Source of the DNA: Vibrio taketomensis
Lineage (GTDB): Bacteria; Pseudomonadota; Gammaproteobacteria; Enterobacterales; Vibrionaceae
Length of the DNA: 64,000 nt
Assembly: GCF_009938165.1 (NCBI RefSeq)
Contig: NZ_AP019649.1
Location: forward strand, 1,116,001-1,180,000
Reading direction: 5' to 3'
Part shown: positions 4,723 to 21,507 of the stretch, piece by piece
Numbering within the stretch: the stretch's first letter is position 1
Layout of the letters: each line of letters starts with the position of its first letter
Notes under the pieces: model-generated
Database searches by the model: none
Seen by the model: the letters and a program-made list of their open reading frames with translations, nothing else
Told to the model about the DNA's origin: nothing
Program-made: the position numbers and the translations under genes

Positions 4723-4781
4723 CAAATCACTAGGCAAGATTGGCTCCAAGTCATTATCTAGATCACACAGAAGGAAGACAG

Positions 4782-5834: not shown

Positions 5835-6960
5835 TCAACGTATGGCTGATGCGATAGCATCGCGAGAGCAACAAGGTTTAGCGAGAAAGATCGCTACGCT
5901 GGATGGTGGCAATTCCACGTCATTACGTTTTGAAAATCAGCATTATGTGAATTTTTCCAGCAATGACTATTTGGGGTTAGCCACGGATCCAGACTTGGCA
6001 CTGGCATGGCAACAAGGGATTGATATTTATGGTTGTGGCAGTAGCGCTTCGCCGTTAGTCACTGGTTTTAGCTACGCGCATCAAGCTTTGGAAGAACGTT
6101 TATGCGACTGGCTTGGGTATGATCGTGCCATTCTGTTTTCATCCGGATTTTCTGCCAATCAAGCGATGCTGTTTTCTCTATTAGAAAAACACGATCTAGT
6201 ACTGCAAGACAGACTTAATCACGCTTCTTTGATGGAAGCGGGCCAAATGTGTAATGCGACAATGAAGCGTTTTCGTCACAACGACATCGCACATTTAACG
6301 CAGCAAATTGATGGCAATACCCTAGTAGTTACCGAAGGCGTATTTAGTATGGATGGCGATCAAGCGCCACTACGTGAAATCGCACAAGTGACTCAAGGTA
6401 AGGCTTGGCTGGCGGTCGATGATGCCCATGGTATTGGTGTTTTGGGTCAACAAGGACGAGGTAGTTGCAACCATGCGGGGATCAAACCTCAACTATTAGT
6501 CGTGACATTTGGTAAAGCATTTGGACTTTCTGGAGCGGCGATTTTGTGCGATGAATTGACCGGTAATTATCTCACTCAATATGCACGTCATCATGTTTAT
6601 TCGACTGCTATGCCTCCAGCACAAGCCCATGCGCTGCGTTGTGCGGTGGATATGATAGCTTCTCAGCAATGGCGTCGTGATAAGTTAGCTGAACTAAATG
6701 ATTGTTTTAATCAACATTTGGCCGATGCCCCAGGGCATATTCACACCAATACGCCAATTAAACCTTATCTCATTGGTGATGCCTCGCAGGCAGTCGCGTT
6801 AACTCATCTCCTACGAGAAAGAGGGCTGTGGTTAACTGCCATTCGCCCACCTACAGTGCCGCAGGGTAAAGCAAGGTTGCGTATTACTTTGACCGCCAAT
6901 CACACCACTAAGCAAGTCAAACAGCTTGCGGAATCGATATACTCTTTGACTCAGGATTAA
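5821..6960 (+). CDS. bioF: 8-amino-7-oxononanoate synthase BioF
   Basis: PLP-dependent KAPA synthase that condenses pimeloyl-ACP (or -CoA) with alanine. The alpha-oxoamine synthase core is visible: [12 protein letters not shown] near the N-terminus, [11 protein letters not shown] and the PLP-lysine motif [13 protein letters not shown]. The start is ATG at 5821 (MPLFNQRM) or the adjacent ATG at 5818, both inside the end of bioB, implying translational coupling. About 380 residues, as usual for BioF. Second gene of the bioBFCD operon. Confidence 0.96.
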
Positions 6961-6962
6961 TC

Positions 6963-7775
6963 ATGACCCAAGTTGTATCTGCTGATTTATATCCAACTAA
7001 CGTATCAAACAAGCAGGCAATCGCCGACGCATTTGGCCGAGCCGCGAGCAGCTATGACCGCCATGCCGCCTTTCAAAGAGATGTCGGTCTGCGTTTGATG
7101 GCAATGTTACCGTCTGACCTAAGTCACCAACGAGTATTAGATTTGGGCTGTGGCACAGGCTTTTTTAGTCAACTATTGCAGCAGCGTGGTGCAAATGTCG
7201 TGTGTTGTGATTTATCTAGCGCGATGCTAGAGCAAGCTAAACGGCGTTGTGGAACCGAGAATATCGAATATTACCAAGGTGATGCTGAATCTCTCCCTTT
7301 TGCGACGGGTGAATTTGATCATGTTTTATCAAGCTTGGCATTGCAATGGTGTGATGATCTCTCCTTTCCTTTGAGAGAAATGATGCGAGTCACTCGTGAT
7401 GGAGGAAGGATCTACTTTTCGACGTTATTGGACGGTTCATTATGTGAGCTAAAGCACGCTTGGTCGAAAATTGATACATATCAACACGTCAATGATTTTA
7501 TTACCCTCAATCAGGTAAAAATTGCGTTAGCGCAAGCTCAAAGCAAAGTTCATCACTTAGACTTGCCGACCATTAAAGTATGGTACCCGTCTGCATTAGC
7601 ATTAATGCGAGACTTAAAGGGAATTGGTGCAAATCATGTTGAGGGTCGAGCGCATGGTTTGACGAGTCGCCAATCTCTTAAGCGTTTAGAGCGAGAGTAC
7701 CAAAATATTGAGTACAACCATCAAGGGTTAGTACCTGCAACATATCAAGTTTGTTTGGGGAAGATTGATCGATGA
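6963..7775 (+). CDS. bioC: Malonyl-ACP O-methyltransferase BioC
   Basis: SAM-dependent methyltransferase that caps malonyl-ACP as a methyl ester so that fatty-acid synthesis can build the pimeloyl moiety of biotin. N-terminal [16 protein letters not shown] is typical of BioC, followed by the SAM motif [12 protein letters not shown] (about residues 60-70) and the [10 protein letters not shown] segment. 270 residues. It starts two bases after bioF and overlaps bioD by four bases (ATGA), so it is co-translated. Confidence 0.95.
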
Positions 7776-8455
7776 TCGATGCATTTTTTATTGCTGGTAC
7801 GGATACCGACGTGGGTAAGACGGTCGCTTCAAAAGCGATCCTCAATGCGCTTGCAGAGAAGGGACTAAAGACGATTGGCTACAAGCCAGTTGCAGCGGGT
7901 AGCGACGAGACAGAGCAAGGTTTGCGAAATTCAGACGCGTTGTATTTACAAAATGCAGCGACAGTTGATGTGGATTATGACGACGTAAACCCTTACGCTT
8001 TAGCGCTACCTGCGTCGCCTCATATTGCGGCGAAACGCGAAAATATAGTAATTGACTATGATGTGTTGAGTGAAAAGCTTGCTCAGCACAAGCAGAATTC
8101 CGATATCGTATTGGTCGAAGGTGCTGGTGGCTGGCGCGTGCCAGTGTCTGATGAAGATTGCCTTTCAAGCTGGGTGCAACGTGAACAGTTACCAGTGGTG
8201 CTGGTCGTAGGTATCAAGCTTGGTTGTTTAAGCCATGCGCTATTGACGCTTGATGCGATTAAAGCCGATGGTTTGGAATTGGCAGGTTGGGTCGCTAACC
8301 GTATCAATCCGGGTACAGAGAACTACGCAGAAATCATCGAAATGCTAGAGCAAAAAATTGCTGCGCCAAAGATCGGTGAAATCCCTTACGTACCGAGTGT
8401 GAAGCGTAAAGATCTCGCCAAATACATTGACGTTACGCCGTTAGTCGCGAAGTAA
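7772..8455 (+). CDS. bioD: Dethiobiotin synthetase BioD
   Basis: ATP-dependent carboxylase that closes the ureido ring of dethiobiotin from DAPA and CO2. The N-terminus [17 protein letters not shown] is the BioD P-loop, and [12 protein letters not shown] is the second family motif. 227 residues. Last gene of the bioBFCD operon, overlapping bioC by four bases and followed by a hairpin. Confidence 0.96.
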
Positions 8456-8478
8456 AATTTTATATAGAATGTAATAGA

Positions 8479-8503
8479 AAGGGCTGCTCATTGAGCCGCC
8501 CTT
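8479..8503 (+). terminator. Probable terminator after bioD
   Basis: Stem AAGGGC / GCCCTT with a loop that is itself partly paired, followed by an AT-rich rather than pure T tail, 24 bases after the bioD stop. It could also serve the small gene on the other strand. Confidence 0.6.
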
Positions 8504-8527
8504 ATTATATCAATCTGAATAAACATT

Positions 8528-8692
8528 TTACTCGTTGCTTAAACCCATTAATGCAGATTGAGTTTCGGCTACACGCTGTTGAAGTTGGTTGTCAGAAGCA
8601 ATGCCAAGTTGTTGTTTGGCTTCGTCTTCTGAGATGCCTAGATGACAGCAAAGCAAATCAATAGCCATTTGATAACTGTTAATTTCAGCCAT
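8528..8692 (-). CDS. Small uncharacterised protein (54 residues)
   Basis: A short frame, MAEINSYQMAIDLLCCHLG..., ending in ...ALMGLSNE. It is preceded by a good Shine-Dalgarno (AAGGA, seven bases before ATG at 8692-8690). The composition is acidic and helical, without signal peptide or membrane segment; two adjacent cysteines lie near residues 15-16. It faces bioD tail-to-tail and is divergent from htpX. I do not recognise a family. The ribosome site, sensible composition and position between two conserved genes make it likely to be real. Confidence 0.65.
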   Translation of the reverse strand: MAEINSYQMAIDLLCCHLGISEDEAKQQLGIASDNQLQQRVAETQSALMGLSNE

Positions 8693-8994
8693 GGTGAGTC
8701 CTTTCCGACGTTGTTTTAAAGCTCCATTTAAATCTAGCAGCTTTTTTTCGCCTCACAATTCGACCAAAGTCTAAATTTATGCCTCAAAAATAGCCGCTTT
8801 GTTATGCCTGAAAGCCATCAGCATAAAACAATTGTATCTATTTGCTTCTGAGTATTGTGTTTCATGTGATTCGGCTATATCTATATGCTAGCCTAGAGGT
8901 TAGAAAATGATGTGACTAGTAATCTGCTCGCATCTATATAAAGGTATCGTCAGGTACCACGAATAATAAGCTTCCTGTTCGGAGAAAAGTAATA

Positions 8995-9864
8995 ATGAAG
9001 CGAGTCATGTTATTCCTTGCAACAAACTTAGCAGTCGTACTGGTACTAAGTGTTGTTCTGAATATTGTTTATGCTGTTACTGGTATGCAACCAGGCAGCT
9101 TATCTGGTCTGCTAGTTATGGCCGCAGTGTTTGGTTTCGGTGGTTCAATCATCTCTTTGATGATGTCTAAAGGCATGGCGTTACGTTCTGTTGGCGGCAT
9201 GGTGATTGAAAGCCCGCGTAATGAAACTGAGCACTGGTTGTTAGAAACCGTTCGCCGTCAGTCTCAGCAAGTAGGTATTGGTATACCGACAGTCGCGATT
9301 TACGACTCTGCAGATATCAACGCATTTGCAACTGGTGCTAAGCGCGATGATTCACTGGTGGCGGTATCAACAGGTTTGCTACACAACATGACACGTGATG
9401 AAGCTGAAGCTGTATTGGCACACGAAGTCAGCCATATTGCGAATGGTGACATGGTAACGATGACGCTGATGCAAGGTGTGGTGAACACATTCGTTATCTT
9501 CCTATCACGCTTTATCGCAAACATCGTTTCGTCAAATAATGATGAAGAAGGCGAAGGTGGCAGCAACATGATGGTGTACTTCGGTGTATCAATGGTGTTG
9601 GAATTGGTATTTGGCTTCTTAGCAAGCTTTATCACTATGTGGTACAGCCGTCACCGTGAATTCCATGCTGATGCAGGCGCAGCGAGCCTTGTTGGTAAAG
9701 AGAAAATGATCGCAGCTCTTGAGCGCTTGAAGGTGAGTCATGAATCTCAACTAGAAGGTTCAATGATGGCGTTTGGTATTAACGGTAAACGTTCAATGAC
9801 AGAACTACTGATGAGCCACCCACCACTAGATAAACGTATCGCAGCACTACGTAGCGGCATGTAA
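8995..9864 (+). CDS. htpX: Membrane zinc metalloprotease HtpX
   Basis: Inner-membrane M48 protease that degrades misfolded membrane proteins together with FtsH. There are two N-terminal membrane helices (about residues 4-26 and 34-54) and the zinc motif HEVSH (in [13 protein letters not shown], about residue 142), with the downstream Glu ligand in [13 protein letters not shown]. Two further hydrophobic segments lie between. 289 residues, the normal length. ATG at 8995 is preceded by GGAGAAAAG. Single gene ending at a strong terminator. In E. coli htpX is CpxR-controlled; I cannot show that here. Confidence 0.96.
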
Positions 9865-9887
9865 TTCTGAAATCTGCTTAATTTATT

Positions 9888-9921
9888 AAAAAGGCTTGGA
9901 AATTTATCCAAGCCTTTTTTT
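9888..9921 (+). terminator. Terminator of htpX
   Basis: Stem AAAAAGGCTTGGA / TCCAAGCCTTTTTTT with a six-base loop, a strong intrinsic terminator 24 bases after the htpX stop. Confidence 0.93.
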
Positions 9922-9957
9922 GATCTCCTTTTGTAAAACCCCGTATCAACTCAATAG

Positions 9958-10033
9958 TTATACAAAAATAAATTTGTACAACTTTGTTTGATGTTCTAGT
10001 TTTTACATATTATACAAAAAATAACATGTATAA
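9958..10033 (+). promoter_or_regulatory. Repeated TATACA/TGTACA operator in front of the lipid operon
   Basis: Two inverted repeats of one motif lie just upstream of the NTF2-like gene. The first is TTATACAAA (9958-9966), six bases, TTTGTACAA (9973-9981). The second is TTATACA (10010-10016), ten bases, TGTATAA (10027-10033). A further TTTACA lies between (10002-10007). Repeats with a TnTACA core resemble sites of the B12-dependent MerR-family photoregulators LitR/CarH. In Vibrio such regulators are known near genes like those downstream. The regulator is an inference; the repeat structure is directly visible. Confidence 0.6.
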
Positions 10034-10050
10034 GATTATTGGAGAGCCAC

Positions 10051-10470
10051 ATGGATGTAACAGCAGTCAGCTCGGTTTATAAACAGCTTAACAAAGCAAA
10101 CCTGCATTTATTAGAAGGTTTGTACCATCCTAACGTGGTGTTTGAAGATGCGGCACACCGACTTGAAGGGTGGGGTGAGCTCAAACATTATTTTGAATCC
10201 CTTTATTCAAACGTACATAGCTGTACTTTTGACATCCAAGAGACCCAGCAACAAGGCGACAGCGGTTTTATCACATGGGTAATGGCACTTGAACACCCTA
10301 AGTTGCAGCGTGGCGGAACAGTTTACGTCAATGGGGTTAGCCACTTAAAGTTTAGCCAAGGCCAAGTTATCTATCATCGAGACTACTTTGACTTGGGAGA
10401 AATGCTGTACGAAAACCTACCCATCCTAGGCAGTGTAATTCGCACGATCAAGCATAGGTTGGGCGAGTAA
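10051..10470 (+). CDS. NTF2/SnoaL-like protein
   Basis: First gene of an eight-gene operon. The 139-residue protein starts with MDVTAVSSVYKQL and has the NTF2/SnoaL cone fold signature (helical N-terminus, LYHPNVVFEDAAHRLEGW, later YHRDYFDLGEMLYENLP). ATG at 10051 follows GGAGAG. Such proteins are small cyclases, isomerases or ligand binders; the substrate here is unknown. The stop overlaps the SDR gene start (TAATG), so the two are translationally coupled. The tight coupling to lipid-type oxidoreductases suggests it acts on the same substrate, which is inference. Confidence 0.82.
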   Translation: MDVTAVSSVYKQLNKANLHLLEGLYHPNVVFEDAAHRLEGWGELKHYFESLYSNVHSCTFDIQETQQQGDSGFITWVMALEHPKLQRGGTVYVNGVSHLKFSQGQVIYHRDYFDLGEMLYENLPILGSVIRTIKHRLGE

Positions 10471-11195
10471 TGAAGACGGTGTTGATTACTGGGGCAACGT
10501 CGGGTATCGGTTTCCAACTTGCTCTAGATTATTTAAATCATGGCTGGCACGTCGTTGCTTGCGGTCGCAATGAGAAACTCTTGTCTTCTTTGCAAAGTGC
10601 CTATCCAAACGTAGAGACACTTCAGTTCGACATCACTAAAGCAGCAGAAACTCGGCAAGCGATGTCGGAAATGCAATCGAAGCCATCGGTCTGGATTTTT
10701 AATGCTGGTAATTGTGAATACATTGAAAACGGTCACTTGGAAAGTGAATTGCTGCGACGTGTATTTGATACCAACTTCATGGGATTAGTTAACTCCATCG
10801 AATCGACTCAAGATCGTTTTGAAAGAGGTGATTCCGTGGTCGTCGTGGGCTCGATTTCTAGTGAAGTCGCGCTACCTAGAGCAGAAGCGTATGGCGCTTC
10901 CAAAGCCGCAGTCAGCTATCTCGCTCGCACCTTGCAAGTGACGCTCAAGCCCAAAGGTATTCATGTTTCTGTGGTTTATCCCGGTTTTGTTGAAACACCA
11001 CTGACGGATAAAAACACGTTTGATATGCCAATGATTGTCTCTGCAGAACACGCTTCGAGCGCGATTCGCAAAGGCATCGAGAAACGCACACCACACATCT
11101 ATTTCCCCACCCGTTTCACGTCCATTTTACGCTTGATAGGGTTGCTCCCATATCGTTGGCAAAATGCACTGACAGCCAAATTACTCAAAGGATAG
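10470..11195 (+). CDS. Short-chain dehydrogenase/reductase
   Basis: Classical SDR of 241 residues. The nucleotide motif TGATSGIGF is at residues 7-15, the NAG motif at about 78-80, an active-site Ser in VGSISSE, and the catalytic YxxxK as YGASK with the usual spacing. The C-terminus has a hydrophobic segment (FTSILRLIGLLPYRW) that could associate with membrane. It would oxidise or reduce a hydroxyl/keto group with NAD(P)H. Second gene of the cfa-type operon; coupled to the NTF2-like gene upstream and 12 bases ahead of the FAD enzyme. Confidence 0.88.
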   Translation: MKTVLITGATSGIGFQLALDYLNHGWHVVACGRNEKLLSSLQSAYPNVETLQFDITKAAETRQAMSEMQSKPSVWIFNAGNCEYIENGHLESELLRRVFDTNFMGLVNSIESTQDRFERGDSVVVVGSISSEVALPRAEAYGASKAAVSYLARTLQVTLKPKGIHVSVVYPGFVETPLTDKNTFDMPMIVSAEHASSAIRKGIEKRTPHIYFPTRFTSILRLIGLLPYRWQNALTAKLLKG

Positions 11196-11207
11196 AGGTA
11201 AGTACTG

Positions 11208-12497
11208 ATGAAAATAGCAATAATAGGATCAGGAATATCTGGATTAACCTGCGGTTATCATCTTCACCAGCATCATGACATTACGCTGTTTGAGGCGAAC
11301 GATTATATCGGTGGGCATACGGCCACTGTCGATGTTGAAGTCAATGGTGAGGAGCATGCGGTTGATACCGGTTTTATTGTTTACAACGATCGTACTTATC
11401 CGCATTTTATTCAAATGATGAATGAAATAGGTGTGGAAGGCGTACCGACTCAAATGAGTTTTAGTGTTTCCAACCAAAGCAACGGATTGGAATACAACGG
11501 GCATACAATCAGCACTTTATTTGCACAAAAGCGCAATTGGTTAAGACCTAAGTTTTACTATTTTATTTATGAGATATTGAAATTTAATAAGCTGGTTAAA
11601 GAGGCTGCGAGCACGAGTCAATCAAACCTATCAGATAGCCAAACGTTGGGCGAGTTTTTAACCGCGAACGGTTTTAGTGACTACTTCTGTGACAACTATA
11701 TCTTACCAATGGGAGCGGCGATTTGGTCATCAACTCTGGCTGACATGCGAGCCTTTCCACTTGGATTTTTTGCGCGATTTTTTCTCAATCACGGTCTTTT
11801 GGATGTGGTCAACCGTCCTCAGTGGTACGTGATAAAAGGGGGATCTAAGCAGTACATTCCAGCGTTGACACAGGGTTTTGCCAATAAAATAAAACTTTCG
11901 TCTCCGGTAACCAAAGTGTGGCGAGATGCTGATGAAGTTTTTGTTGAGTCCAAGGGGCACGTGGAGTGCTTCGATCAGGTGATTTTTGCTTGTCATAGTG
12001 ACCAAGCATTAGCGATGTTGGGTGATCCAAGTATCGATGAGCAACAGGTGCTAACCGCATTAGCTTATCAAAATAACGAAGTGGTGTTACACACCGACAC
12101 CTCATTGTTACCGATGCGACCTGCCGCATGGGCATCGTGGAACTACCGCATCGCAGGGAAAGACAACGAGCATGACGCGCCGCCAATGCTTACCTATAAC
12201 ATGAACATTCTACAGCACATCAAGAGTTCAACGACTTTTTGTGTCTCGCTTAATAGTTCAGATTATATCGACCGATCAAAAATACTGCGTCGGTTTAACT
12301 ATAGCCATCCGGTATTTAACAATGAATCATTTGCTGCGCAGCAGCAGCGTGGCCGAGTTAACGGTATCGCAAATACCTGGTTTTGTGGTGCTTATTGGTA
12401 CAACGGTTTTCATGAAGATGGTGTGCGTAGCGCGCTCGACGTTGTTGATGCCATTGATAAACAGCAGCAAATGCATGTCACTAAGGGAGCAGCGTAA
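11208..12497 (+). CDS. FAD-dependent oxidoreductase (COG2907, amine-oxidase-like)
   Basis: A 429-residue flavoprotein with the N-terminal dinucleotide fold IAIIGSGISGLTCGYHL and the ribose-binding Glu in DITLFEANDYIGGHTATVD. The C-terminal FAD motif is in FCGAYWYNGFHEDGVRSALDV. This is the COG2907 group, commonly found beside cfa and DUF1365 genes in Proteobacteria. In Rhodobacter, related enzymes are reported to work on methylated unsaturated fatty acids in furan fatty acid formation. Third gene of the operon, ending directly at the DUF1365 start. Confidence 0.88.
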   Translation: MKIAIIGSGISGLTCGYHLHQHHDITLFEANDYIGGHTATVDVEVNGEEHAVDTGFIVYNDRTYPHFIQMMNEIGVEGVPTQMSFSVSNQSNGLEYNGHTISTLFAQKRNWLRPKFYYFIYEILKFNKLVKEAASTSQSNLSDSQTLGEFLTANGFSDYFCDNYILPMGAAIWSSTLADMRAFPLGFFARFFLNHGLLDVVNRPQWYVIKGGSKQYIPALTQGFANKIKLSSPVTKVWRDADEVFVESKGHVECFDQVIFACHSDQALAMLGDPSIDEQQVLTALAYQNNEVVLHTDTSLLPMRPAAWASWNYRIAGKDNEHDAPPMLTYNMNILQHIKSSTTFCVSLNSSDYIDRSKILRRFNYSHPVFNNESFAAQQQRGRVNGIANTWFCGAYWYNGFHEDGVRSALDVVDAIDKQQQMHVTKGAA

Positions 12498-13255
12498 ATG
12501 GAAAGCTGTTTACTTGTTGGACATGTTCGACACCGACGCTTTACCCCAGTAGAGCATGCACTCAATTACTCTTTGTTTATGCCTTGCCTTGATTTGGATG
12601 AACTGTTGGAGGTTGAGAGCCAAGTATGGGGGTTCGGTACTCGCTGGTGGCACTGGGCTCGTTTTCGTCGAGAGGACTATATTGGTCAAGGTGATCTGAA
12701 AAGTGCTGTTTTGATAAAGTATTCGAGCTGACGGGTGAAAAATTCGATCAGGGTCGCGTCGAGGCCGTGGTTCATCTCAGATATTTGGGGATCTATTTTA
12801 GCCCAGTGAATTTCTACTATGTGTACGACAAAGGCGGAGATTGGAAATACTTATTGGCTGAGGTGAGTAATACACCTTGGAATGAACGCCATTACTATGC
12901 AGTGCCTGCCGATTCTAGCCAGCAATGGCAGCACGCAAAAGCATTTCATGTTTCGCCCTTTAACCCCATCGAGCAACAATACCACTGGCGTGTGAAGCCA
13001 CTTAAAAAGACGTTGAGCATTCATCTTGAATGTCATCGTGATCAGCGTGAATTTGATGCCACCTTGGCGATGCAAAAGCAGCGTTTAGATAGCGCGTACC
13101 TTATCAAAAAACTGATCTCGACACCCATCATGGCGGTAAAAGTGACCGTTGGTATTTATTGGCATGCGTTAAAACTTTGGCTTAAAGGCGCACCCTTCTA
13201 TTCACATCCTAAATATTCGAATTCATCGAATAAGCAGAGCAAAAAAGGAGCGTAG
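12498..13255 (+). pseudogene. DUF1365 protein, split by a frameshift
   Basis: The conserved cfa-neighbour family DUF1365 (COG3496). As written, the frame from 12498 (MESCLLVGHVRHRRFTPVEHAL, the usual N-terminus) stops at 12731; a second frame with RYLGIYFSPVNFYYVYD and VSNTPWNERHYY runs to 13255. The four-T run at 12709-12712 is the break: one added T gives ...SAVFDKVFELTGEKFDQGRVEAVVHLRYLG without interruption and a normal length of about 252 residues. The stop is four bases before the cfa-like gene. The biochemical role is unknown; genetic association places it in membrane-lipid modification. Probably intact in the organism. Confidence 0.85.
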
Positions 13256-13259
13256 GAAG

Positions 13260-14501
13260 ATGACAACTCAAACTCTAACCCTTCCAAAGCGACTAACATC
13301 GATAGAAAAAACAGCACGTAGTGTCGTTTTCACCTGTATGCATAAAATCGCCATTGGCAATTTAACCGTGGTTGAAGAATTTGAAACTGGAAAAGTTGAG
13401 CATAGAGAGACGTTTGGTGAGGGCCCAAGTGGTCAAATCAACGCGGTCGTGATTGTACGCAACCCAGCCTTTTACACGCGCCTTTTAAAAGGGGGCAGCA
13501 TAGCAGCTGCAGAGGCCTATATGGATGGCTGGTGGGATAGCCCCAATCTCACCGATGTCACCGAACTAATGGCTCGAAACATGGCGATGTTAGATAACTT
13601 AGAAAGCCGGTCGAGTTTTCTTACTGACATTATCAATCGGGTTTCTCATTGGCTCAATCGCAATACCTTGGAGAACTCGGAAAAAAATATTCATGCTCAT
13701 TATGATTTGAGTAATGATCTCTATGAGACATTTCTTGATTCAAACATGCTTTACTCGGCGGCCATTTTTGAGCGTGCAAGCGAGACATTGGAGCAAGCAC
13801 AAATCAATAAAATGGAACGCCTTTGCCAACAGTTACGGTTGTCTTCTACTGACCATGTGATTGAAATCGGCACAGGTTGGGGGGCAATGGCCATTTATAT
13901 GGCACAAAACTATGGTTGCCATGTGACCACCACCACCATCTCTGATGCGCAATACGACTACACCAAACAGCGAGTCGAAGCCCTGGGGTTACAAAACAAA
14001 ATAACGCTGCTCAAGAAAGATTACCGCTTGTTAGAGGGGGAGTATGACAAACTTGTTTCGATTGAGATGATTGAGGCAGTTGGTAAAGAGTACCTCACAT
14101 CTTATATCAAGAAGTGCCAGTCCTTACTTAAACCTCAAGGTCTCATGGCCATTCAAGCGATCACCATTGCTGATCAGCGTTATAAGAGCTACAGCAACAA
14201 CGTCGATTTTATTCAGAAATATATTTTCCCTGGCGGTTTTTTACCGTCGATTACGGCTCTGACTCAAACGGCTACCCAACATAGCGACTTAGTACTTCGT
14301 GACTTATTTGATATCGGTGAGGACTATGCCAAAACACTGAATCATTGGTATCAACGCTTTAATGCTCAGTTAGAGCACGTTAACGAGTTAGGTTTTGATG
14401 ACCGCTTTGTGCGTATGTGGAACTACTACTTCTGTTATTGTGAGGGCGGCTTTAAAGCTAAAGCGATCAGTACCGTTCACATGACATTTCAACGTCCGTG
14501 A
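13260..14501 (+). CDS. cfa: Cyclopropane-fatty-acid-synthase-family methyltransferase with atypical active site
   Basis: A 413-residue member of the Cfa/CMAS family, which transfers a methylene from SAM to the double bond of phospholipid acyl chains. Landmarks are the HYDLSNDLYETFLD segment, SAM motif VIEIGTGWGAMA, EMIEAVG, KYIFPGGFLPS and the C-terminal ISTVHMTFQRP. Compared with E. coli Cfa, the Cys of QYSCAYW is Ala here (LYSAAIF, residue 167) and the His of LLHTIG is Gln (AIQAIT, residue 299), while the Glu of FEHVG is kept (E272). The bicarbonate-binding triad is therefore incomplete, so it may be a methyltransferase making methylated unsaturated rather than cyclopropane fatty acids. Confidence 0.9.
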   Translation: MTTQTLTLPKRLTSIEKTARSVVFTCMHKIAIGNLTVVEEFETGKVEHRETFGEGPSGQINAVVIVRNPAFYTRLLKGGSIAAAEAYMDGWWDSPNLTDVTELMARNMAMLDNLESRSSFLTDIINRVSHWLNRNTLENSEKNIHAHYDLSNDLYETFLDSNMLYSAAIFERASETLEQAQINKMERLCQQLRLSSTDHVIEIGTGWGAMAIYMAQNYGCHVTTTTISDAQYDYTKQRVEALGLQNKITLLKKDYRLLEGEYDKLVSIEMIEAVGKEYLTSYIKKCQSLLKPQGLMAIQAITIADQRYKSYSNNVDFIQKYIFPGGFLPSITALTQTATQHSDLVLRDLFDIGEDYAKTLNHWYQRFNAQLEHVNELGFDDRFVRMWNYYFCYCEGGFKAKAISTVHMTFQRP

Positions 14502-14514
14502 TGAGTCATCTGTC

Positions 14515-15036
14515 ATGAGTGCGATTAAGCAACTGGTTATTGTCTCCACCATTTTTCAAATTGTTTGGTTTATGGCGGTGTTAGGGCGTGAAACATGGCA
14601 GTGGTTCACGCTTGCTACTATTGCTGTGATTCTGCTGATCACTGCAGTGCGTTGTCAATTTCGTTGGCGTGTTTGGTTGTTACTTATTATCGTCGGAGTG
14701 AGTGTCGATGTACTTAACATCGTGTTTGGTGTTTTGGTTTTTGACACCACTTTTTTCCCGCTCTGGCTATTGGGTCTTTGGGTGACATTTTTTTGGTATG
14801 CGCAATTTCTAGCCCTGGTATTGAGCCAATATCCACTTCCTCTCGTATCAATAATTGGCGGCGTCGCTGGTGCTGTAAGCTATGTCGCTGGATACAAGCT
14901 CGGAGCTGTGACACTAGGTTTATCTTCTGTTTTAGCTTTTGTGGTTTTCTTTATTGAGTGGACACTTTTGGTTGCCCTCATTATGAAGGTGGTGAACAGA
15001 GAGGGTAAGAATCATGGAAAAGATTCAATGGCGTAG
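14515..15036 (+). CDS. DUF2878 integral membrane protein
   Basis: A 173-residue hydrophobic protein with about five or six membrane segments (residues about 6-24, 30-46, 50-72, 78-102, 106-128, 134-156) and almost no soluble part. It fits DUF2878, which is commonly found next to cfa and DUF3833. Starts 13 bases after the cfa-like gene and overlaps the next gene by 23 bases, so it is co-translated. Function unknown; context suggests a membrane partner of the lipid-modifying enzymes. Confidence 0.82.
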   Translation: MSAIKQLVIVSTIFQIVWFMAVLGRETWQWFTLATIAVILLITAVRCQFRWRVWLLLIIVGVSVDVLNIVFGVLVFDTTFFPLWLLGLWVTFFWYAQFLALVLSQYPLPLVSIIGGVAGAVSYVAGYKLGAVTLGLSSVLAFVVFFIEWTLLVALIMKVVNREGKNHGKDSMA

Positions 15037-15595
15037 AATAATTGTTTTGGTGTTAGTGCTCTTCAATATATCGTGGGTAAAGGCTTCACCGGCAGGGCAG
15101 AATGATAATACTGAAAAGTTTGATACAACGAATTGGCAAAGCTGGCAGCAAGTAGGCAGTGCGCAGCTCAGTGTATTTGTTTTCGACATATACCAATCTA
15201 GATTGCTTACTCCCACCGGCGTTTACAATCTTGGCAACGACATCACTCCTCACCCGTTAGCGTTAGACATTCGTTATCAAAGAGATATTACGAAAAAGCA
15301 GTTGCTTGAGGCGACATATGAACAGTGGGTTAAATTAGGTTTCAACCAACAACAATCCACGCAATGGATAGAGCAACTCGAGTTAATATTTCCAAATATA
15401 AAGGAAGGACAGCGTTTAACGTATGTCACCAACGGACAGACAGGACAGTTTGTTTATTCATTGAAATCCGGTCAGCAAAAAAAGATTGGTTATATTAATG
15501 ATGAATCGTTGAATGATGCTTTTCTCGCCATTTGGTTGTCACCAAAAACAGAATATGCGGATTTACGTAGAAGGCTTATAGGGATGAAACGATGA
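15014..15595 (+). CDS. Chalcone-isomerase-like periplasmic protein
   Basis: A 193-residue protein with an N-terminal hydrophobic signal segment (residues about 8-24, cleaved near VKASPA). The body has the chalcone isomerase-like pattern (SVFVFDIYQSRLLTP, LDIRYQRDITKKQLLEATYEQW, LTYVTNGQTGQFVYS). Proteins of this fold bind fatty acids or flavonoid-like ligands; bacterial members are often non-catalytic. It overlaps DUF2878 upstream and DUF3833 downstream (ATGA), so it belongs to the operon. A fatty-acid-binding role in the periplasm is inference. Confidence 0.8.
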   Translation: MEKIQWRRIIVLVLVLFNISWVKASPAGQNDNTEKFDTTNWQSWQQVGSAQLSVFVFDIYQSRLLTPTGVYNLGNDITPHPLALDIRYQRDITKKQLLEATYEQWVKLGFNQQQSTQWIEQLELIFPNIKEGQRLTYVTNGQTGQFVYSLKSGQQKKIGYINDESLNDAFLAIWLSPKTEYADLRRRLIGMKR

Positions 15596-16119
15596 GAACT
15601 AAGCTGTTTGTTATGATATCGAGTTTTCTTACTTTGGTCGGCTGCGGTACCACGCTTAAAGACTATCAAAATACGACGCCCACATTCTCATTGTTTGAAT
15701 ACTTTAATGGCAAAACACATGCTTGGGGAATAGTACAGGATTTCTCTGGTAAACAAACGCGCAGCTTTGAGGTAAAAATAGTTGGAACTGTAGAGGGGAA
15801 CAATCTCACGTTGGTCGAGGATTTTATCTACAGTGACGGGGTTGAGGAGCAGCGCATTTGGAATATTCAACGTCTTGAAGATGGAACATATCAGGGAACT
15901 GCAAAGGATATTATTGGCGTCGCAACAGGAGCGGAGCAGGGCAATGCGATGCGATGGCAGTATGATTTTGAATTACCCTATGATGGGTCGACGATTACCG
16001 TCGCCATGGATGATTGGTTATTTCGCCGCGACGAGAGTCATTTGTTCAATATTACCAGCGTGAAAAAATTTGGGATTGAAGTAGCGACCGTGACGATATT
16101 TTTCCAAAAGCAGGATTGA
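15592..16119 (+). CDS. DUF3833 lipoprotein
   Basis: A 175-residue protein with a type II signal sequence ending in the lipobox LVGC (Cys at residue 19). The body matches DUF3833: an early FNGKTHAWGIVQDFSGKQTRSFEV segment and a later WNIQRLEDGTYQGTAKDIIGVATG, a lipocalin-like beta pattern. Last gene of the operon, overlapping the previous stop by four bases and followed by a bidirectional terminator. A lipid-binding role in the envelope is plausible from fold and context, not shown. Confidence 0.85.
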   Translation: MRTKLFVMISSFLTLVGCGTTLKDYQNTTPTFSLFEYFNGKTHAWGIVQDFSGKQTRSFEVKIVGTVEGNNLTLVEDFIYSDGVEEQRIWNIQRLEDGTYQGTAKDIIGVATGAEQGNAMRWQYDFELPYDGSTITVAMDDWLFRRDESHLFNITSVKKFGIEVATVTIFFQKQD

Positions 16120-16158
16120 TGATCAATTTCAGATATCTGAGATAAAATTCTGAGATAA

Positions 16159-16188
16159 AATAAAGCTTCCATAAGGAAGCTTTATTTT
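16159..16188. terminator. Bidirectional terminator between the lipid operon and purB
   Basis: Stem AATAAAGCTTCC / GGAAGCTTTATTTT with a four-base loop, between two convergent genes; T-rich tails are present in both directions. Confidence 0.88.
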
Positions 16189-16203
16189 CTATTTATTACG
16201 CTA

Positions 16204-17715
<1,512 letters not shown>

Positions 17716-18333
17716 TTACATTCGAGCAAGAAGAATTTGTGCTTGCTCGACCATTTTTTTGCGGCCAAAGATCAGGTGACGTCTTTTGCCTCCGACCTGG
17801 CGCCATAGTACTGCGCTACGAATTCCCGAGAGAAGCAGTGCTCGCACCTTGTTTTGATTGCTGCTTTGTTGCAGTACCGTTGGTGTTCCAGTGACTTGAA
17901 TACGTGGACCAATCGGGCTCACAACATCAAGGTACACACTCGCAAGGTTACTGATCATTTGGTCATCAGTAATGGCAAAATGTTCTGCTTGGCGGCCTAG
18001 CATTTGAATGCGATCACCAAGTTGAGACATTGCATCATTGCGGCTGCTCAATTTACGTTCAAGCGCCATCAGGCTGATAATGTAGCGAGTAATTTCACTG
18101 CCCGCAGGTGTATTATCAATCCCTTTTACTAGGCACTCTAGTCCAAGCTTTAGGTCGGACTCACGACCAAATACGTTTAATGTGCTGCTTGGACTAACGT
18201 TGAGAATCGCTTTCAGTGAAGTTTCAAACGCGTCAGTGTCACAATAACCGTTCTTTGCTGCTTGCTGAACCAGTGCGACAGCTTGGCAAATACCTGCAAA
18301 TGCAATAGTGCGGTCATAAAGAGTGTTAGCCAC
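17716..18333 (-). CDS. hflD: HflD homologue
   Basis: A 205-residue membrane-associated protein, known in E. coli as a regulator of phage lambda lysogenisation that interacts with CII. The N-terminus [24 protein letters not shown] is typical of the family, as is the position between mnmA and purB. It starts 27 bases after mnmA, so the two are probably cotranscribed. The cellular role outside phage biology is unclear. Confidence 0.92.
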
Positions 18334-18360
18334 GTAGAGTTACTCCTGAAATAAGTACGA

Positions 18361-19482
18361 TTAAATGCGTTGTTCGATGATACCACCACCAAGACACACT
18401 TCACCTTGGTAGAATACTGCTGATTGACCCGGAGTTACAGCAACTTGTGGCTCATCAAAGATAACTTTAATAGTGTTGTCATCCACAGGGATGATAGTAC
18501 ACGGAATATCTGTTTGACGGTAACGAGTTTTTACACTGCATTGTAACGGCTGGTTAATCGGCGTGCGGTCTACCCAGTGTAGTTGAGATGCGATCAAACC
18601 ATTTGATTTTAGTAGTGGGTGATCAGCACCTTGTACCGCGATCAGTACATTACGTTTGAGATCTTTTTCTGCTACGTACCATGGATCTTCATTGCCGCCG
18701 CCACCTTTGGTGCCACCGATATGTAGACCTTTACGTTGACCTAGAGTGTGATACATCAAGCCTTGGTGTTCGCCAATCACTTTGCCCTCTGGCGTTTCAA
18801 TTTTACCTGGTTGAGCAGGTAAGTAACGACCTAGGAATTCAGTAAATTTACGCTCACCGATAAAGCAGATACCCGTTGAGTCTTTTTTCTTGGCTGTAAT
18901 CAAATCTTGCTCTTCAGCAATACGGCGTACTTCTGGTTTCTCTAGTTCACCAACAGGGAATAGGCTGCGAGCTACTTGCTCATGGCTTAGAGTGTATAAG
19001 AAGTAGCTTTGGTCTTTGTTGCCATCCAAGCCACGTAGCATTTGTGGCTTCTCACCATTTTCTGGGAACGAGCGGCGTACATAGTGACCCATTGCAATGT
19101 AGTCAGCATCAAGTACTTCATCTGCATACTCTAGGAATGCTTTGAATTTGATTTCTTTATTACAAAGAATATCTGGGTTTGGCGTACGACCTGCTTTGTA
19201 TTCTTCTAGGAAGTACTCAAACACATTGTCCCAGTATTCTGAGGCAAAGTTGATTTTATGTAGGTGGATGCCAAGCTTGTCACATACTGCCTGTGCGTCC
19301 GCAAGATCTTGCGCCGCAGTACAGTATTCTTCATTGTCATCTTCTTCCCAGTTCTTCATAAACAGGCCTTCAACTTGATAGCCTTGCTGTTTTAGAAGAT
19401 ACGCAGAAACCGATGAATCAACACCGCCAGACATACCAACGATGACTTTCTTTTGACTGTTGTCAGTACAGTTCTCAGACAT
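18361..19482 (-). CDS. mnmA: tRNA-specific 2-thiouridylase MnmA
   Basis: Makes the 2-thio group of s2U34 in tRNA-Lys, -Glu and -Gln with sulfur from the IscS/Tus relay. The PP-loop motif [10 protein letters not shown] is at residues 19-28, and the catalytic cysteines are in [12 protein letters not shown] and [10 protein letters not shown]. The C-terminal beta-barrel ends in [23 protein letters not shown]. 373 residues, normal. First gene of mnmA-hflD. Confidence 0.97.
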
Positions 19483-19722
19483 TGCTTAACACCACATAAT
19501 TTAACTGGGGGCAGATTCTAACAGAAAGCATTTCGCTGCGACAGATCCGAGACCGAAATCACACTTCGAAAAGTACTTCTTTTACCGATTAATTGGTTAA
19601 AACCTGCTTTATTGATAACGATGAGTCCTCTATATATGGCATAGTAGGCCAAATTCAAGCTCGGAAGATGTATTAATTACATCCCGTTGTTATTTTTGTA
19701 TTTGCAGAGAACAGCACAAATC

Positions 19723-19992
19723 ATGACTGATGAAAACCAAATCCTTGAAGAAGCCGACCTAATTGAGGTTATTGAGAACCAATTAGCGGACGGTAATCCT
19801 CTTAAAGTGAAAGAAACATTAATGCGTCTGATGATGACAGGCACAACGCGTGATGATGCCGTTGCGATGATGGCTTGTGCCGTTGCAATTGAAATTTTTG
19901 ATGTGATGAAAAACGAAGGTGAGTTCAATTTGAAGCGCTATTCTGAGCATCTTGATCGCTTACCAGACCTAAGTTTTATGGAAGGTGAATAG
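19723..19992 (+). CDS. Small conserved-looking acidic protein (89 residues)
   Basis: Begins MTDENQILEEADLIEVIENQLADG and continues with a helical segment (KVKETLMRLMMTGTTRDDAVAMMACAVAIEIFDVMKNEG). Acidic, no signal peptide, no membrane segment. An in-frame extension to 19687 is possible, but the ATG at 19723 gives a more natural soluble N-terminus. Divergent from mnmA and directly upstream of gsk. I recognise the general appearance of a gammaproteobacterial helical family but cannot name it; function unknown. Confidence 0.75.
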   Translation: MTDENQILEEADLIEVIENQLADGNPLKVKETLMRLMMTGTTRDDAVAMMACAVAIEIFDVMKNEGEFNLKRYSEHLDRLPDLSFMEGE

Positions 19993-20011
19993 AGTAAACG
20001 TTTGCTATAAT
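19992..20011 (+). promoter_or_regulatory. Probable gsk promoter with PurR-like half palindrome
   Basis: A consensus -10 hexamer TATAAT (20006-20011) overlaps AGTAAACGTTTGCT, whose AAACGTTT core matches the PurR palindrome at purB but with poorer flanks. Placed 73 bases before the gsk ATG. Purine control of gsk is plausible and unproven. Confidence 0.5.
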
Positions 20012-20083
20012 CGCAGTTATTGCCGCTAATATCATCGCGCGGTAGAATCCGCGCTCCTGTCATCCATTAACAGAACCTGAACT

Positions 20084-21388
20084 ATGAAATTTCCTGGTCA
20101 ACGTAAATCAAAGCACTACTTCCCAGTACATGCGCGTGATCCTCTTGTGAGCCAAGCGCAAACCAGCAAAAAAATGTCACGTACCCATATTATCGGTATT
20201 GACCAAACCCTAGTAGACATTGAAGCAAAAGTTGGCTCGGAGCTAATTGAAAAATACGGTTTGAGTAAAGGACACTCATTAGTTATTGATGATCAATCAG
20301 CAGAAGCGTTGTATAACGAGCTTAAAGAAAACTGTCTGATCACCAACGAATATGCAGGCGGTACCATCGGTAACACGCTACATAATTACTCTGTATTAGC
20401 GGATGATAGATCAACACTGCTAGGTGTCATGAGCCAAGATATTAAGATTGGCAGTTACGGTTACCGTTACCTATGTAACACATCAAGCCGTATGGATTTA
20501 AATTACCTACAAGGTGTTGACGGGGCAATTGGTCGTTGTTTCGCGTTAATTACTGAAGATGGTGAGCGTACGTTTGCTATCAGTGAAGGTCAGATGAACC
20601 AGCTTCATCCAGACAACATTCCAGAAAAAATCTTCAAGAATGCTTCTGCATTAGTGCTGACCGCTTATCTTGTGCGTTGTAAAGAGGGCGATCCAATGCC
20701 TGACGCAACAATGCGAGCGATTGAATACGCTAAGAAGCATGATGTGCCGGTGGTATTAACTTTGGGCACTAAGTTTGTTATTCAAGATGACCCTAAATTC
20801 TGGCAAGACTTCCTGCGTGATCATGTGAGCGTGGTAGCGATGAACGAAGACGAAGCTGAAGCGTTAACTGGTGAGCACGACCCTCTAGCAGCTTCCGATA
20901 AAGCACTTGAGTGGGTTGATTTGGTATTGTGTACTGCAGGCCCTGTAGGTCTATACATGGCTGGTTATACCGAAGATGAAGCGAAACGTGAAACATCACT
21001 ACCACTTCTTCCAGGTCAAATTGCAGAATTCAACCGTTACGAGTTTAGTCGCCCTGCAGTAAAAGACCTTTGTGATAATCCAATTAAGGTTTATTCACAT
21101 ATTTCACCATACATGGGTGGACCAGAAAAAATTAAAAATACCAATGGTGCGGGTGATGCGGCGTTATCAGCTTTATTGCATGATATGGCAGCAAATAAAT
21201 ACCATAAAGAAAACGTACCAAACTCAAGCAAACATGCATATGGTTTCTTAACGTATTCATCTTTCTCACAAGTATGTAAATACTCTAACCGCGCAAGTTA
21301 TGAAGTGCTAGTGCAACACTCACCACGTTTATCTCGTGGTTTGCCTGAGCGTGAAGATAGCCTTGAAGAAGCGTATTGGGAACGTTAA
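20084..21388 (+). CDS. gsk: Inosine-guanosine kinase
   Basis: PfkB-family kinase that phosphorylates inosine and guanosine for purine salvage. 434 residues starting MKFPGQRKSKHYFPVHARDP, the conserved N-terminus of proteobacterial Gsk. Substrate-side glycines are in YAGGTIGNTLHN; the C-terminal anion-hole/catalytic motif NTNGAGDAALSALLHD carries the base Asp. Monocistronic, with terminator; sits with purB in a purine-flavoured neighbourhood. Confidence 0.96.
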   Translation: MKFPGQRKSKHYFPVHARDPLVSQAQTSKKMSRTHIIGIDQTLVDIEAKVGSELIEKYGLSKGHSLVIDDQSAEALYNELKENCLITNEYAGGTIGNTLHNYSVLADDRSTLLGVMSQDIKIGSYGYRYLCNTSSRMDLNYLQGVDGAIGRCFALITEDGERTFAISEGQMNQLHPDNIPEKIFKNASALVLTAYLVRCKEGDPMPDATMRAIEYAKKHDVPVVLTLGTKFVIQDDPKFWQDFLRDHVSVVAMNEDEAEALTGEHDPLAASDKALEWVDLVLCTAGPVGLYMAGYTEDEAKRETSLPLLPGQIAEFNRYEFSRPAVKDLCDNPIKVYSHISPYMGGPEKIKNTNGAGDAALSALLHDMAANKYHKENVPNSSKHAYGFLTYSSFSQVCKYSNRASYEVLVQHSPRLSRGLPEREDSLEEAYWER

Positions 21389-21452
21389 TAAACGGAAAAT
21401 AAGTATTAGATAATGAATCAATTGTTGTCTAATACTTCAAATAACGACTAAT

Positions 21453-21483
21453 AAAAAAGCTCCCATATTTGGGAGCTTTTTTT
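21453..21483. terminator. Bidirectional terminator between gsk and hns
   Basis: Stem AAAAAAGCTCCCA / TGGGAGCTTTTTTT with a short loop, between convergent genes; runs of A and T on both sides allow termination in both directions. Confidence 0.93.
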
Positions 21484-21507
21484 GTATCAATCTATTCGAT
21501 TAACCTA

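What the first reader, a model, noticed from the sequence alone, without database searches (positions are those of the whole stretch)
9958..16119. Coupled eight-gene lipid-modification operon behind a repeated LitR/CarH-like operator
Seen: eight genes without gaps (NTF2-like, SDR, COG2907 FAD oxidoreductase, DUF1365, Cfa-family enzyme, DUF2878, chalcone-isomerase-like, DUF3833 lipoprotein), five junctions overlapping or touching. Known: related sets are induced by singlet oxygen, light or B12-photoreceptors in other Proteobacteria, and Rhodobacter homologues take part in furan fatty acid formation. Inference: this operon makes a modified (methylated, perhaps oxidised) membrane lipid, and its last three products handle that lipid in the membrane and periplasm. 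No function is established for DUF1365, DUF2878 or DUF3833.
Basis: partly seen in the sequence, partly recalled or inferred. Interest (0 to 1): 0.75.

Follow-up and report, generated by a model that had tools for sequence, protein, structure and literature searches.

The report
Light-stress membrane-lipid operon, oxygenase gene broken
A Vibrio bacterium carries an eight-gene operon, likely switched on by light and oxidative stress through two predicted stacked promoters, that is predicted to make methylated, furan-type membrane fatty acids; in this genome the gene for the predicted final oxygen-adding enzyme is split by a frameshift, so the pathway would probably stop one step short.

Summary
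The fourth (DUF1365, the UfaO family that closes the furan ring in Rhodobacter) is split by a frameshift, the only frame change found in the 17 kb checked and the genome's only DUF1365 copy. And a sigmaE-ChrR-type promoter (9921-9946) lies just upstream of the two palindromes; among the loci compared it is the more widely conserved control.

The strict palindrome occurs three times in the genome: twice here, once before rudS-litR-phr. Between the two copies a sigma70-like promoter is conserved in 11 of 12 compared promoters. I read tandem promoters, one sigmaE-driven, one LitR/PhrR-repressed. This LitR-like protein has no recognisable B12 domain.

The 'Cfa' enzyme has Gln where E. coli Cfa has His, and fits UfaM rather than cyclopropane synthase. 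The DUF3833 lipoprotein is predicted to be a fatty-acid-binding-type barrel and, in 196 genomes of the genus, was never found without DUF1365.

The V. cholerae counterpart (VC1118 onward) is already known to respond to blue light. New here: promoter stacking, UfaM reassignment, a probable natural ufaO break. Chemistry, binding and the reality of the frameshift in the living strain are untested.

The parts
9921..9946 (+). Predicted sigmaE (RpoE-ChrR type) promoter TGATC-N16-CGTAT
   Evidence: only match in the window (1.4 expected by chance on both strands). Exact motif upstream of gene 1 in 23 of 24 loci of the Vibrio group and 13 of 27 others, against 11 of 2,394 control tiles. Motif as published for V. 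cholerae (PMC5241685).
9958..9981 (.). Operator 1, TTRTACA-N10-TGTAYAA palindrome, predicted LitR/PhrR site; its right half (9974-9979, TTGTAC) is a putative -35 hexamer
   Evidence: TTGTAC agrees with TTGACA at only 3 of 6 positions
9997..10002 (+). Putative weak -10 hexamer (TAGTTT) of a sigma70-type promoter, 17 nt after TTGTAC
   Evidence: TAnnnT at spacing 16-18 in 11 of 12 compared promoters; 2,000 shuffles mean 1.9, largest 7. This window's hexamer is one of the two weakest that pass (3 of 6), and the general scan does not list it.
10010..10033 (.). Operator 2, same palindrome, near the start of the putative sigma70 transcript
10051..10470 (+). Gene 1, SnoaL_2/NTF2-like protein (139 aa), counterpart of VC1118 by gene number
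   Evidence: Pfam PF12680, 1.7e-13
10470..11195 (+). Gene 2, short-chain dehydrogenase (241 aa)
   Evidence: Pfam PF00106, 2.9e-35
11208..12497 (+). Gene 3, FAD amine-oxidase-like flavoprotein (429 aa), predicted UfaD-type desaturase
   Evidence: Pfam PF01593, 3.9e-20; order FAD-DUF1365-CMAS as in R. palustris; Halomonas has the three genes consecutive
12498..12731 (+). Gene 4, N-terminal piece of a frameshifted DUF1365 (UfaO-family) gene, ends at a stop after 77 codons
   Evidence: the change of frame lies at about 12,700-12,720
12767..13255 (+). Gene 4, C-terminal piece of the same DUF1365 gene in another frame (162 aa from GTG)
   Evidence: Pfam PF07103 positions 86-234, 2.4e-53; the two pieces are the only DUF1365 matches in the genome
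13260..14501 (+). Gene 5, CMAS-family methyltransferase (413 aa), predicted UfaM type, not canonical Cfa
   Evidence: Pfam PF02353, 2.3e-81; Gln at the position aligned to a His of E. coli Cfa in 81 of 81 sequences; below the NCBIfam Cfa cut-offs; only full-length CMAS match in the genome
14515..15036 (+). Gene 6, DUF2878 protein (173 aa), hydrophobic, counterpart of VC1123 by gene number
   Evidence: Pfam PF11086, 1.8e-26; VC1123 is described as a DUF2878 protein
15014..15595 (+). Gene 7, chalcone-isomerase-like, probably exported protein (193 aa)
   Evidence: Pfam PF16036, 6.9e-10; no convincing relative in the PDB by sequence, best E 0.73
15592..16119 (+). Gene 8, DUF3833 probable lipoprotein (175 aa), predicted ten-stranded lipid-binding-type barrel
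   Evidence: Pfam PF12915, 2e-63; invariant Cys18 in 36 aligned sequences; model pLDDT 95; nitrobindin/BFA1/FABP-like
16157..16188 (+). Terminator-like hairpin, 14 pairs, with T-rich tail

Best explanation
This is a Vibrio operon of the photo-oxidative-stress type whose core enzymes are predicted to build methylated, furan-type membrane fatty acids, whose promoter region stacks a likely sigmaE-ChrR promoter on a likely LitR/PhrR-repressed sigma70 promoter, and whose DUF1365 (UfaO) gene is split by a frameshift, so that in this strain the pathway would probably stop at the methylated, desaturated fatty acid before the furan ring.

Predicted steps, none tested here:
- Light or singlet oxygen inactivates ChrR, and RpoE transcribes from 9921-9946.
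- Light or another cue also lifts the MerR-family LitR/PhrR from two operators. The right half of operator 1 serves as -35 of a second promoter, and operator 2 covers its start.
- Gene 5 (UfaM type) methylates cis-unsaturated phospholipid chains, and gene 3 (UfaD type) desaturates them.
- DUF1365 would insert O2-derived oxygen to close the furan ring, but here it is broken.
- The last three products (hydrophobic DUF2878 protein, chalcone-isomerase-like protein, lipoprotein barrel) would bind or move the modified or oxidised lipid in the envelope.

Shown directly: gene content and order, the frameshift in the deposited sequence, the sites and their conservation in the loci compared, the presence of litR-like and rpoE-chrR genes elsewhere in the genome, the non-Cfa active-site position, and the co-occurrence of DUF3833 with DUF1365.
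For: Families. Frameshift. SigmaE motif: exact in 23 of 24 Vibrio-group upstream regions against 11 of 2,394 control tiles. RpoE and ChrR genes: (ChrR 232 bits, cut-off 124.5). Operators: three strict sites in the genome, all at this operon or at rudS-litR-phr. In 61 genus genomes there are 73 strict sites, against 6 for the control pattern. 32 lie upstream of the DUF1365 operon, 39 elsewhere, and 2 could not be placed by coordinate; those 2 are before gene 1 (L151). Of 31 site-bearing loci read (about one per genome; the tool gives at most 30 per search), 16 lie before gene 1, 10 before rudS-litR and 5 near neither. Sigma70-like -10: 11 of 12 promoters, shuffles at most 7. Gln position: 81 of 81. 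Chemistry by family: R. sphaeroides and R. palustris UfaM/UfaD/UfaO (PMC7380195, passages); Halomonas UfaM expressed in E. coli (PMC12089945, passages). V. cholerae counterpart: VC1122 up-regulated by blue light, VC1118 among 21 blue-light-responsive genes checked by qPCR (PMC5241685; the direction for VC1118 is not in what I read). DUF3833: 182 genomes with both families, 10 with neither, 4 with DUF1365 only, 0 with DUF3833 only, Fisher p 5e-14 without correction for kinship.
Against: No lipid, expression or binding data exist for this strain. The frameshift could be a sequencing error: no reads and no genome of the same species were seen, and both protein-database searches failed. Identity of genes 3 and 5 with UfaD and UfaM rests on family, gene order and one active-site position; the experimentally tested sequences were not aligned. 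The putative sigma70 hexamers are weak in this window (3 of 6 each). Operators are missing (not even one within one mismatch) in 12 of the 24 Vibrio-group upstream regions, 27 of 61 genus genomes have no strict site, and 39 of 73 strict sites are not at this operon, so LitR control is neither universal nor exclusive. Two of the three own sigmaE sites end in CGTAG, not the published CGTAW.
Confidence: 0.6

Rival explanations
1. The frameshift is a sequencing or assembly error (or a variant of this one isolate); the species has an intact UfaO and the operon makes complete furan fatty acids under the same dual control.
For: The C-terminal piece shows no decay (181.7 bits). No reads or conspecific genomes could be seen (searches failed).
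Against: It is the only frame change the script found over window positions 4,770-21,912 with ORFs of 7 relatives (141 of 146 with hits). The genome is in 2 contigs at 99.97% completeness. Four other genus genomes carry split DUF1365 genes.
Confidence: 0.25
2. Gene 5 is an ordinary cyclopropane fatty acid synthase that hardens membranes against light-generated ROS, as proposed for VC1122, and DUF1365 is accessory.
For: It is in the CMAS family, its best solved relative is E. coli Cfa 6bqc, and PMC5241685 names VC1122 a putative CFA synthase.
Against: Gln replaces a His of E. coli Cfa in 81 of 81 sequences, and Ser, Ala or Gly stands at the Cys position in 69 of 81 (12 keep Cys). The score is below the NCBIfam Cfa cut-offs (282.9 of 400; 265 of 600; 216.2 of 650). 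The neighbours are UfaD- and UfaO-family genes.
Confidence: 0.08
3. A B12-dependent LitR/CarH photoreceptor controls the operon.
For: The operator resembles LitR sites, and the DNA-binding part of the regulator matches CarH.
Against: The genome's LitR-like protein has no B12-binding domain in Pfam. Vibrio LitRs are classed as class IV without that domain (PMC9758184, passages).
Confidence: 0.04
4. The two DUF1365 pieces are both made (by ribosomal frameshifting or reinitiation) and work together or as one protein.
For: Split DUF1365 genes recur in 5 of 186 genus genomes with DUF1365, with little decay of the C-terminal piece. The breaks cluster: about residues 62 (G116), 68-72 (own), 77 (G139) and 88-94 (G001, G097) of a 252-residue relative. 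Part of that clustering is expected, because a split shows up as two family matches only if both pieces are long.
Against: The break places are close but not identical. The invariant residues are divided between the pieces: H10, R12 and D58 in one, P100, N122, T123, K145, S150-F152 in the other. Intact relatives need no shift.
Confidence: 0.08

Closest known systems
Vibrio cholerae operon VC1118 onward (VC1122 'Cfa', VC1123 DUF2878)
   Same: Same order by gene number (fifth gene CMAS, sixth DUF2878). VC1122 is up-regulated and VC1118 regulated by blue light in the ChrR/MerR study (PMC5241685). VC1123 is annotated in the RegPrecise PhrR regulon according to PMC12971978 (passage; RegPrecise itself not seen).
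   Different: The V. cholerae sequence itself was not compared here. No lipid chemistry is given in what I read; the enzyme is called a cyclopropane synthase; no DUF1365 break is reported in the passages seen.
Rhodobacter sphaeroides sigmaE-ChrR furan-fatty-acid genes (ufaD RSP1091, ufaO RSP1090, ufaM RSP2144; operon RSP1087-1091)
   Same: Same enzyme families and a sigmaE-ChrR promoter; furan-lipid genes belong to the conserved core regulon and are needed for ChrR turnover (PMC6852236, passages).
   Different: There ufaM lies apart from ufaD/ufaO and ufaO is intact; here there is a LitR/PhrR layer, a trailing envelope trio and a broken ufaO.
Pseudomonas class II LitR regulon (P. putida PplR, P. 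mendocina PmlR2)
   Same: LitR sites T(G/A)TACA-N12-TGTA(C/T)A; target region with SDR, FAD oxidoreductase and ufaM; site 1 overlaps -35 and site 2 lies between start site and start codon (PMC9758184, passages).
   Different: Spacing here is N10-11 between TRTACA halves; the Vibrio-type regulator lacks the B12-type part and no LOV partner is known to me; a sigmaE promoter lies upstream.
Shewanella oneidensis RpoE2-ChrR operon SO_3386-SO_3374
   Same: Same TGATC...CGTAAT promoter type and a cfa-annotated gene (PMC4336711, passages); S. putrefaciens makes furan acids (PMC3528120, passages).
   Different: A photolyase gene lies in the same operon; none of the 27 upstream regions outside the Vibrio group, Shewanella among them, had an operator.

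Membership tests
Bacterial furan-fatty-acid biosynthesis set (UfaM/UfaD/UfaO) | FAD flavoprotein (UfaD type), DUF1365 and CMAS-family methyltransferase encoded together in this order | tested here: met
   same order in the loci that have all three; R. palustris RPA2571-2570-2569; Halomonas consecutive. The tested UfaD/UfaM sequences themselves were not aligned.
Bacterial furan-fatty-acid biosynthesis set (UfaM/UfaD/UfaO) | Intact UfaO (DUF1365) open reading frame | tested here: not met
   Two frames in the deposited sequence; so this copy is not filed as a complete furan pathway, only as an operon of that type.
Bacterial furan-fatty-acid biosynthesis set (UfaM/UfaD/UfaO) | Production of methylated furan fatty acid | not testable with these tools
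   Needs GC-MS.
Cyclopropane fatty acid synthase (Cfa) | Curated Cfa model cut-off and the active-site His of E. coli Cfa | tested here: not met
   282.9 bits against 400 for NF008686; Gln in 81 of 81. That this position is catalytic is recalled.
RpoE(ECF)-ChrR regulon | rpoE-chrR pair in the genome and TGATC-N16-18-CGTAW promoter at the operon | tested here: met
   ChrR TIGR02451 232 bits, cut-off 124.5; sigma factor; promoter TGATC-N16-CGTAT.
RpoE(ECF)-ChrR regulon | Induction by singlet oxygen or blue light | not testable with these tools
   Reported for V. cholerae VC1122 (PMC5241685).
LitR/CarH-type regulon | MerR-family regulator beside a photolyase gene, with matching palindromes at its own promoter and at the target | tested here: met
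   L094.
LitR/CarH-type regulon | B12-binding domain (class I LitR/CarH photoreceptor) | tested here: not met
   Only MerR models in Pfam at E<=0.001; PDB match to CarH limited to residues 7-66. A weak NCBIfam CarH match reaches residue 139 but stays far below its cut-off (64 of 400 bits).
LitR/CarH-type regulon | Operator half-sites TRTACA/TGTAYA spaced by 12 (class II consensus) | tested here: not met
   Half-sites agree but spacing is 10 or 11; a spacing variant, not the class II site.
Calycin/FABP-like lipid-binding barrels (for DUF3833) | Ten-stranded barrel of this fold | tested here: met

The most novel reading that the evidence does not exclude
The locus is a two-key switch with a lipid in the loop. 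In Rhodobacter furan lipids are needed for ChrR to be destroyed by singlet oxygen, so in Vibrio the sigmaE promoter would feed on its own product, while the LitR/PhrR-gated second promoter starts the operon without that product. This strain's broken ufaO would be a natural uncoupling of the loop: it should accumulate a methylated diene, respond weakly through ChrR, and depend on LitR alone for its light response.
Probability: 0.2. Interest if true: 0.75.

Novelty: new variant of a known kind. Interest (0 to 1): 0.5.

Why it matters
It turns a vague 'lipid operon' into a testable pathway in a large, well-studied genus. The light-induced enzyme of Vibrio (VC1122 and its counterparts) is probably not a cyclopropane synthase but a UfaM, so the photo-oxidative lipid of Vibrio would be a methylated or furan fatty acid. 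The promoter anatomy predicts how two light inputs meet at one operon and gives the Vibrio-type LitR, whose function is called unknown in PMC9758184, a candidate operator and two candidate target operons. A natural ufaO break, if real, is a ready-made test of whether the furan ring itself, or only the methylated diene, matters for ChrR signalling. DUF3833 gains a predicted fold and a constant partner.

Tried and rejected
B12 photoreceptor: rejected, no B12 domain. Second MerR gene on chromosome 2 (L095): by eye a MerR fused to a methyltransferase-like part, with no operators within one mismatch in that stretch. Cyclopropane synthase: see rivals. The general sigma70 scan listed no promoter at 9865-10060 on its criteria; the putative one rests on comparison only.

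Is DUF1365 split more often than its neighbour? 5 of 186 against 0 of 182 for DUF3833 by the same two-match criterion, Fisher p 0.06; tblastn shows one frame change near the end of DUF3833 in G097. Not significant. The four other split genes (G001, G097, G116, G139) lie in stretches of 12 kb without an htpX or purB match, so they belong to copies at another place than this one. G126 was flagged with a stop inside DUF1365 and left out of the count of split genes; it was not resolved. Of the 10 genomes without DUF1365, one is 65% complete (G053) and two are about 1 Mb (G026, G125). An early control that let tiles overlap the promoter was replaced.

Rows dropped: upstream regions were taken only where gene 1 was found on the + strand with 350 nt before it, 51 of 81 (window plus 80 loci). 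The two groups were cut by locus number: the 'Vibrio group' of 24 (window, L004-L025, L079) includes two Photobacterium, one Thaumasiovibrio and one Idiomarina; the 27 others include two Vibrionales (L035, L042). The promoter test used the 11 lipid-operon promoters with two operators plus L094, and these sequences are related. In one search three genomes (G013, G020, G028) were judged by the DUF3833 place because their DUF1365 row was not listed.

Change after checking: a draft said that the breaks of other genomes lie elsewhere in the gene. One search shows them at different but nearby places, so I raised the two-piece rival from 0.05 to 0.08.

Absence in print: 'furan fatty acid' with 'Vibrio' gave 11 papers, none with a Vibrio-made furan acid in its title or in the part of the abstract listed (most texts not read). 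VC1118/1119/1122/1123 gave 6 papers (listing, two of them read in part). Not seen, only cited in others: Lemke 2014, Nam 2013, Dufour 2008, Sumi 2020, RegPrecise.

Full report
WHAT IS THERE. The window lies at 1,116,001-1,180,000 of the larger of two contigs (2.96 and 1.34 Mb) of a 4.3 Mb genome. Its closest named relatives are Vibrio species (where found, HtpX is 81-95% and PurB 88-96% identical), so I call it a Vibrio; the species is not identified. Four junctions overlap or touch.

THE BROKEN GENE. DUF1365 is in two frames: the first frame stops after 77 codons (12498-12731) and covers profile positions 1-65; the rest of the family continues in another frame and covers 86-234. The genome has no other DUF1365 match. 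With ORFs of 7 relatives (141 of 146 with hits) this is the only frame change the script found from 4,770 to 21,912. In 63 of the 80 relatives' loci both parts were found, and in all 63 they share one frame. In 196 genus genomes 186 have DUF1365; five, this one included, have it split. In the four others the rest of the operon is in one frame except the end of DUF3833 in G097, and their copies have no htpX or purB match within the 12 kb fetched. The breaks lie close together but not at one place: about residues 62 (G116), 68-72 (here), 77 (G139) and 88-94 (G001, G097) of a 252-residue relative. The invariant residues of 42 aligned DUF1365 proteins are divided between the two pieces, so I predict no UfaO activity. 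Whether the shift is real in the organism is not proven: no reads were available, and both protein-database searches failed.

WHAT THE ENZYMES DO. In R. sphaeroides UfaM methylates cis-vaccenate, UfaD desaturates the product and UfaO, a DUF1365 protein, is needed for the O2-derived oxygen that gives a furan fatty acid; R. palustris has them in the order UfaD-UfaO-UfaM (PMC7380195, passages), and Halomonas has them consecutive, its UfaM giving 11-methyloctadec-12-enoate in E. coli (PMC12089945, passages). Genes 3-4-5 here have that order, as do the other loci that hold all three. Gene 5 scores 202 bits to E. coli Cfa (6bqc), but Gln stands where E. coli Cfa has a His in 81 of 81 sequences, and Ser, Ala or Gly (69 of 81; 12 keep Cys) where it has a Cys. 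That these are catalytic in Cfa is recalled. It misses the NCBIfam Cfa cut-offs, and it is the only full-length CMAS match in the genome. I therefore read it as UfaM-type. The step from family to chemistry is inference.

CONTROL. A sigmaE-type motif, TGATC-N16-CGTAT, lies at 9921-9946, matching the motif published for V. cholerae (PMC5241685). It is exact in 23 of 24 Vibrio-group upstream regions and 13 of 27 others (51 of 81 loci gave an upstream region), against 11 of 2,394 control tiles. The genome has rpoE-chrR with such a motif at its own promoter (L096). Downstream come the two palindromes. The strict form occurs three times in the genome: two here, one at rudS-litR-phr, where a fourth with one mismatch and another TGATC-N18-CGTA also lie. 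Two or more operators (up to one mismatch) occur in 11 of 24 Vibrio-group promoters, 0 of 27 others, and 2 of 2,394 tiles. In 61 genus genomes 34 have strict sites, 73 in all, against 6 for the control pattern; by coordinates 32 lie upstream of the DUF1365 operon in 24 genomes, 39 elsewhere, 2 undecided. Of 31 loci read, 16 lie before gene 1, 10 before rudS-litR, 5 near neither. In 11 of 12 promoters the right half of operator 1 (TTGTAY) is followed after 16-18 nt by TAnnnT (2,000 shuffles: mean 1.9, maximum 7; the sequences are related, so this is not a clean probability). This matches P. mendocina, where LitR site 1 overlaps -35 and site 2 lies between start site and start codon (PMC9758184, passages). 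I infer tandem promoters. In V. cholerae a double knockout of ChrR and the MerR protein VCA0056 is blind to blue light (PMC5241685, parts 1-3 of 7 and passages); whether VC1118 depends on one or both is not stated in what I read. V. cholerae ChrR also answers to nitric oxide (PMC11976125, passages), so light need not be the only cue.

THE TRAILING TRIO. DUF3833 occurs in 182 of 196 genus genomes, always with DUF1365; the 10 genomes without DUF1365 also lack it, and 4 have DUF1365 only (Fisher p 5e-14, not corrected for kinship). Its model (pLDDT 95) is a ten-stranded barrel like BFA1, nitrobindin and fatty-acid-binding proteins, behind an invariant Cys18. A role in binding modified or oxidised lipid is a reasonable inference, untested. 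In V. cholerae, deletion of VC1123 (DUF2878) strongly changes ompU/ompT expression (PMC12971978, abstract and passages), which also points to the envelope.

NOVELTY. The operon type, its light response, its sigmaE-ChrR membership (core regulon with furan-lipid genes, PMC6852236, passages) and its place in a predicted PhrR regulon (PMC12971978, passage) are known. What I add is the stacked promoter anatomy, the UfaM reassignment in Vibrio, the probable natural ufaO break, and the DUF3833 link.

Noticed in passing
L097 (G000 chromosome 2, 1257833-1258449): A second protein with ChrR-cupin matches, apparently two cupin repeats; its neighbours were not examined.
   Followed up: no
L094:2409-5662 (G000 chromosome 2, about 173.9-177.2 kb): rudS-litR-phr operon (RudS-like desulfidase, LitR-like MerR, photolyase) with the same kind of sigmaE motif and two operators.
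   Followed up: yes
L157, L163, L168, L171, L172: Five strict operator sites in other genus genomes without a match to the lipid operon or rudS-litR in the 3 kb held; extra targets or chance.
   Followed up: no
L035, L042; also L143-L146: Copies of the operon in Vibrio genomes without htpX or purB beside them; L035 and L042 have no operators but an exact sigmaE motif. The four other split DUF1365 genes (L143-L146) are of this kind. Exchange of the operon between lineages is possible.
   Followed up: partly
L143-L146 and window 12,700-12,720: Breaks of DUF1365 in five genomes fall within about 33 residues of each other; hotspot, tolerance of a split there, or a bias of detection is undecided.
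   Followed up: partly
L068, L070, L071, L073, L077: Campylobacterota loci with SDR and NTF2-like genes in swapped order, FAD, CMAS and DUF3833 directly after CMAS; no tblastn match to DUF2878 or the chalcone-isomerase-like gene.
   Followed up: partly
L033:24-1005 and L040:3295-4385: Chalcone-isomerase-like and DUF3833 genes sit as a pair some kb before the core genes, suggesting that these two can move together.
   Followed up: no
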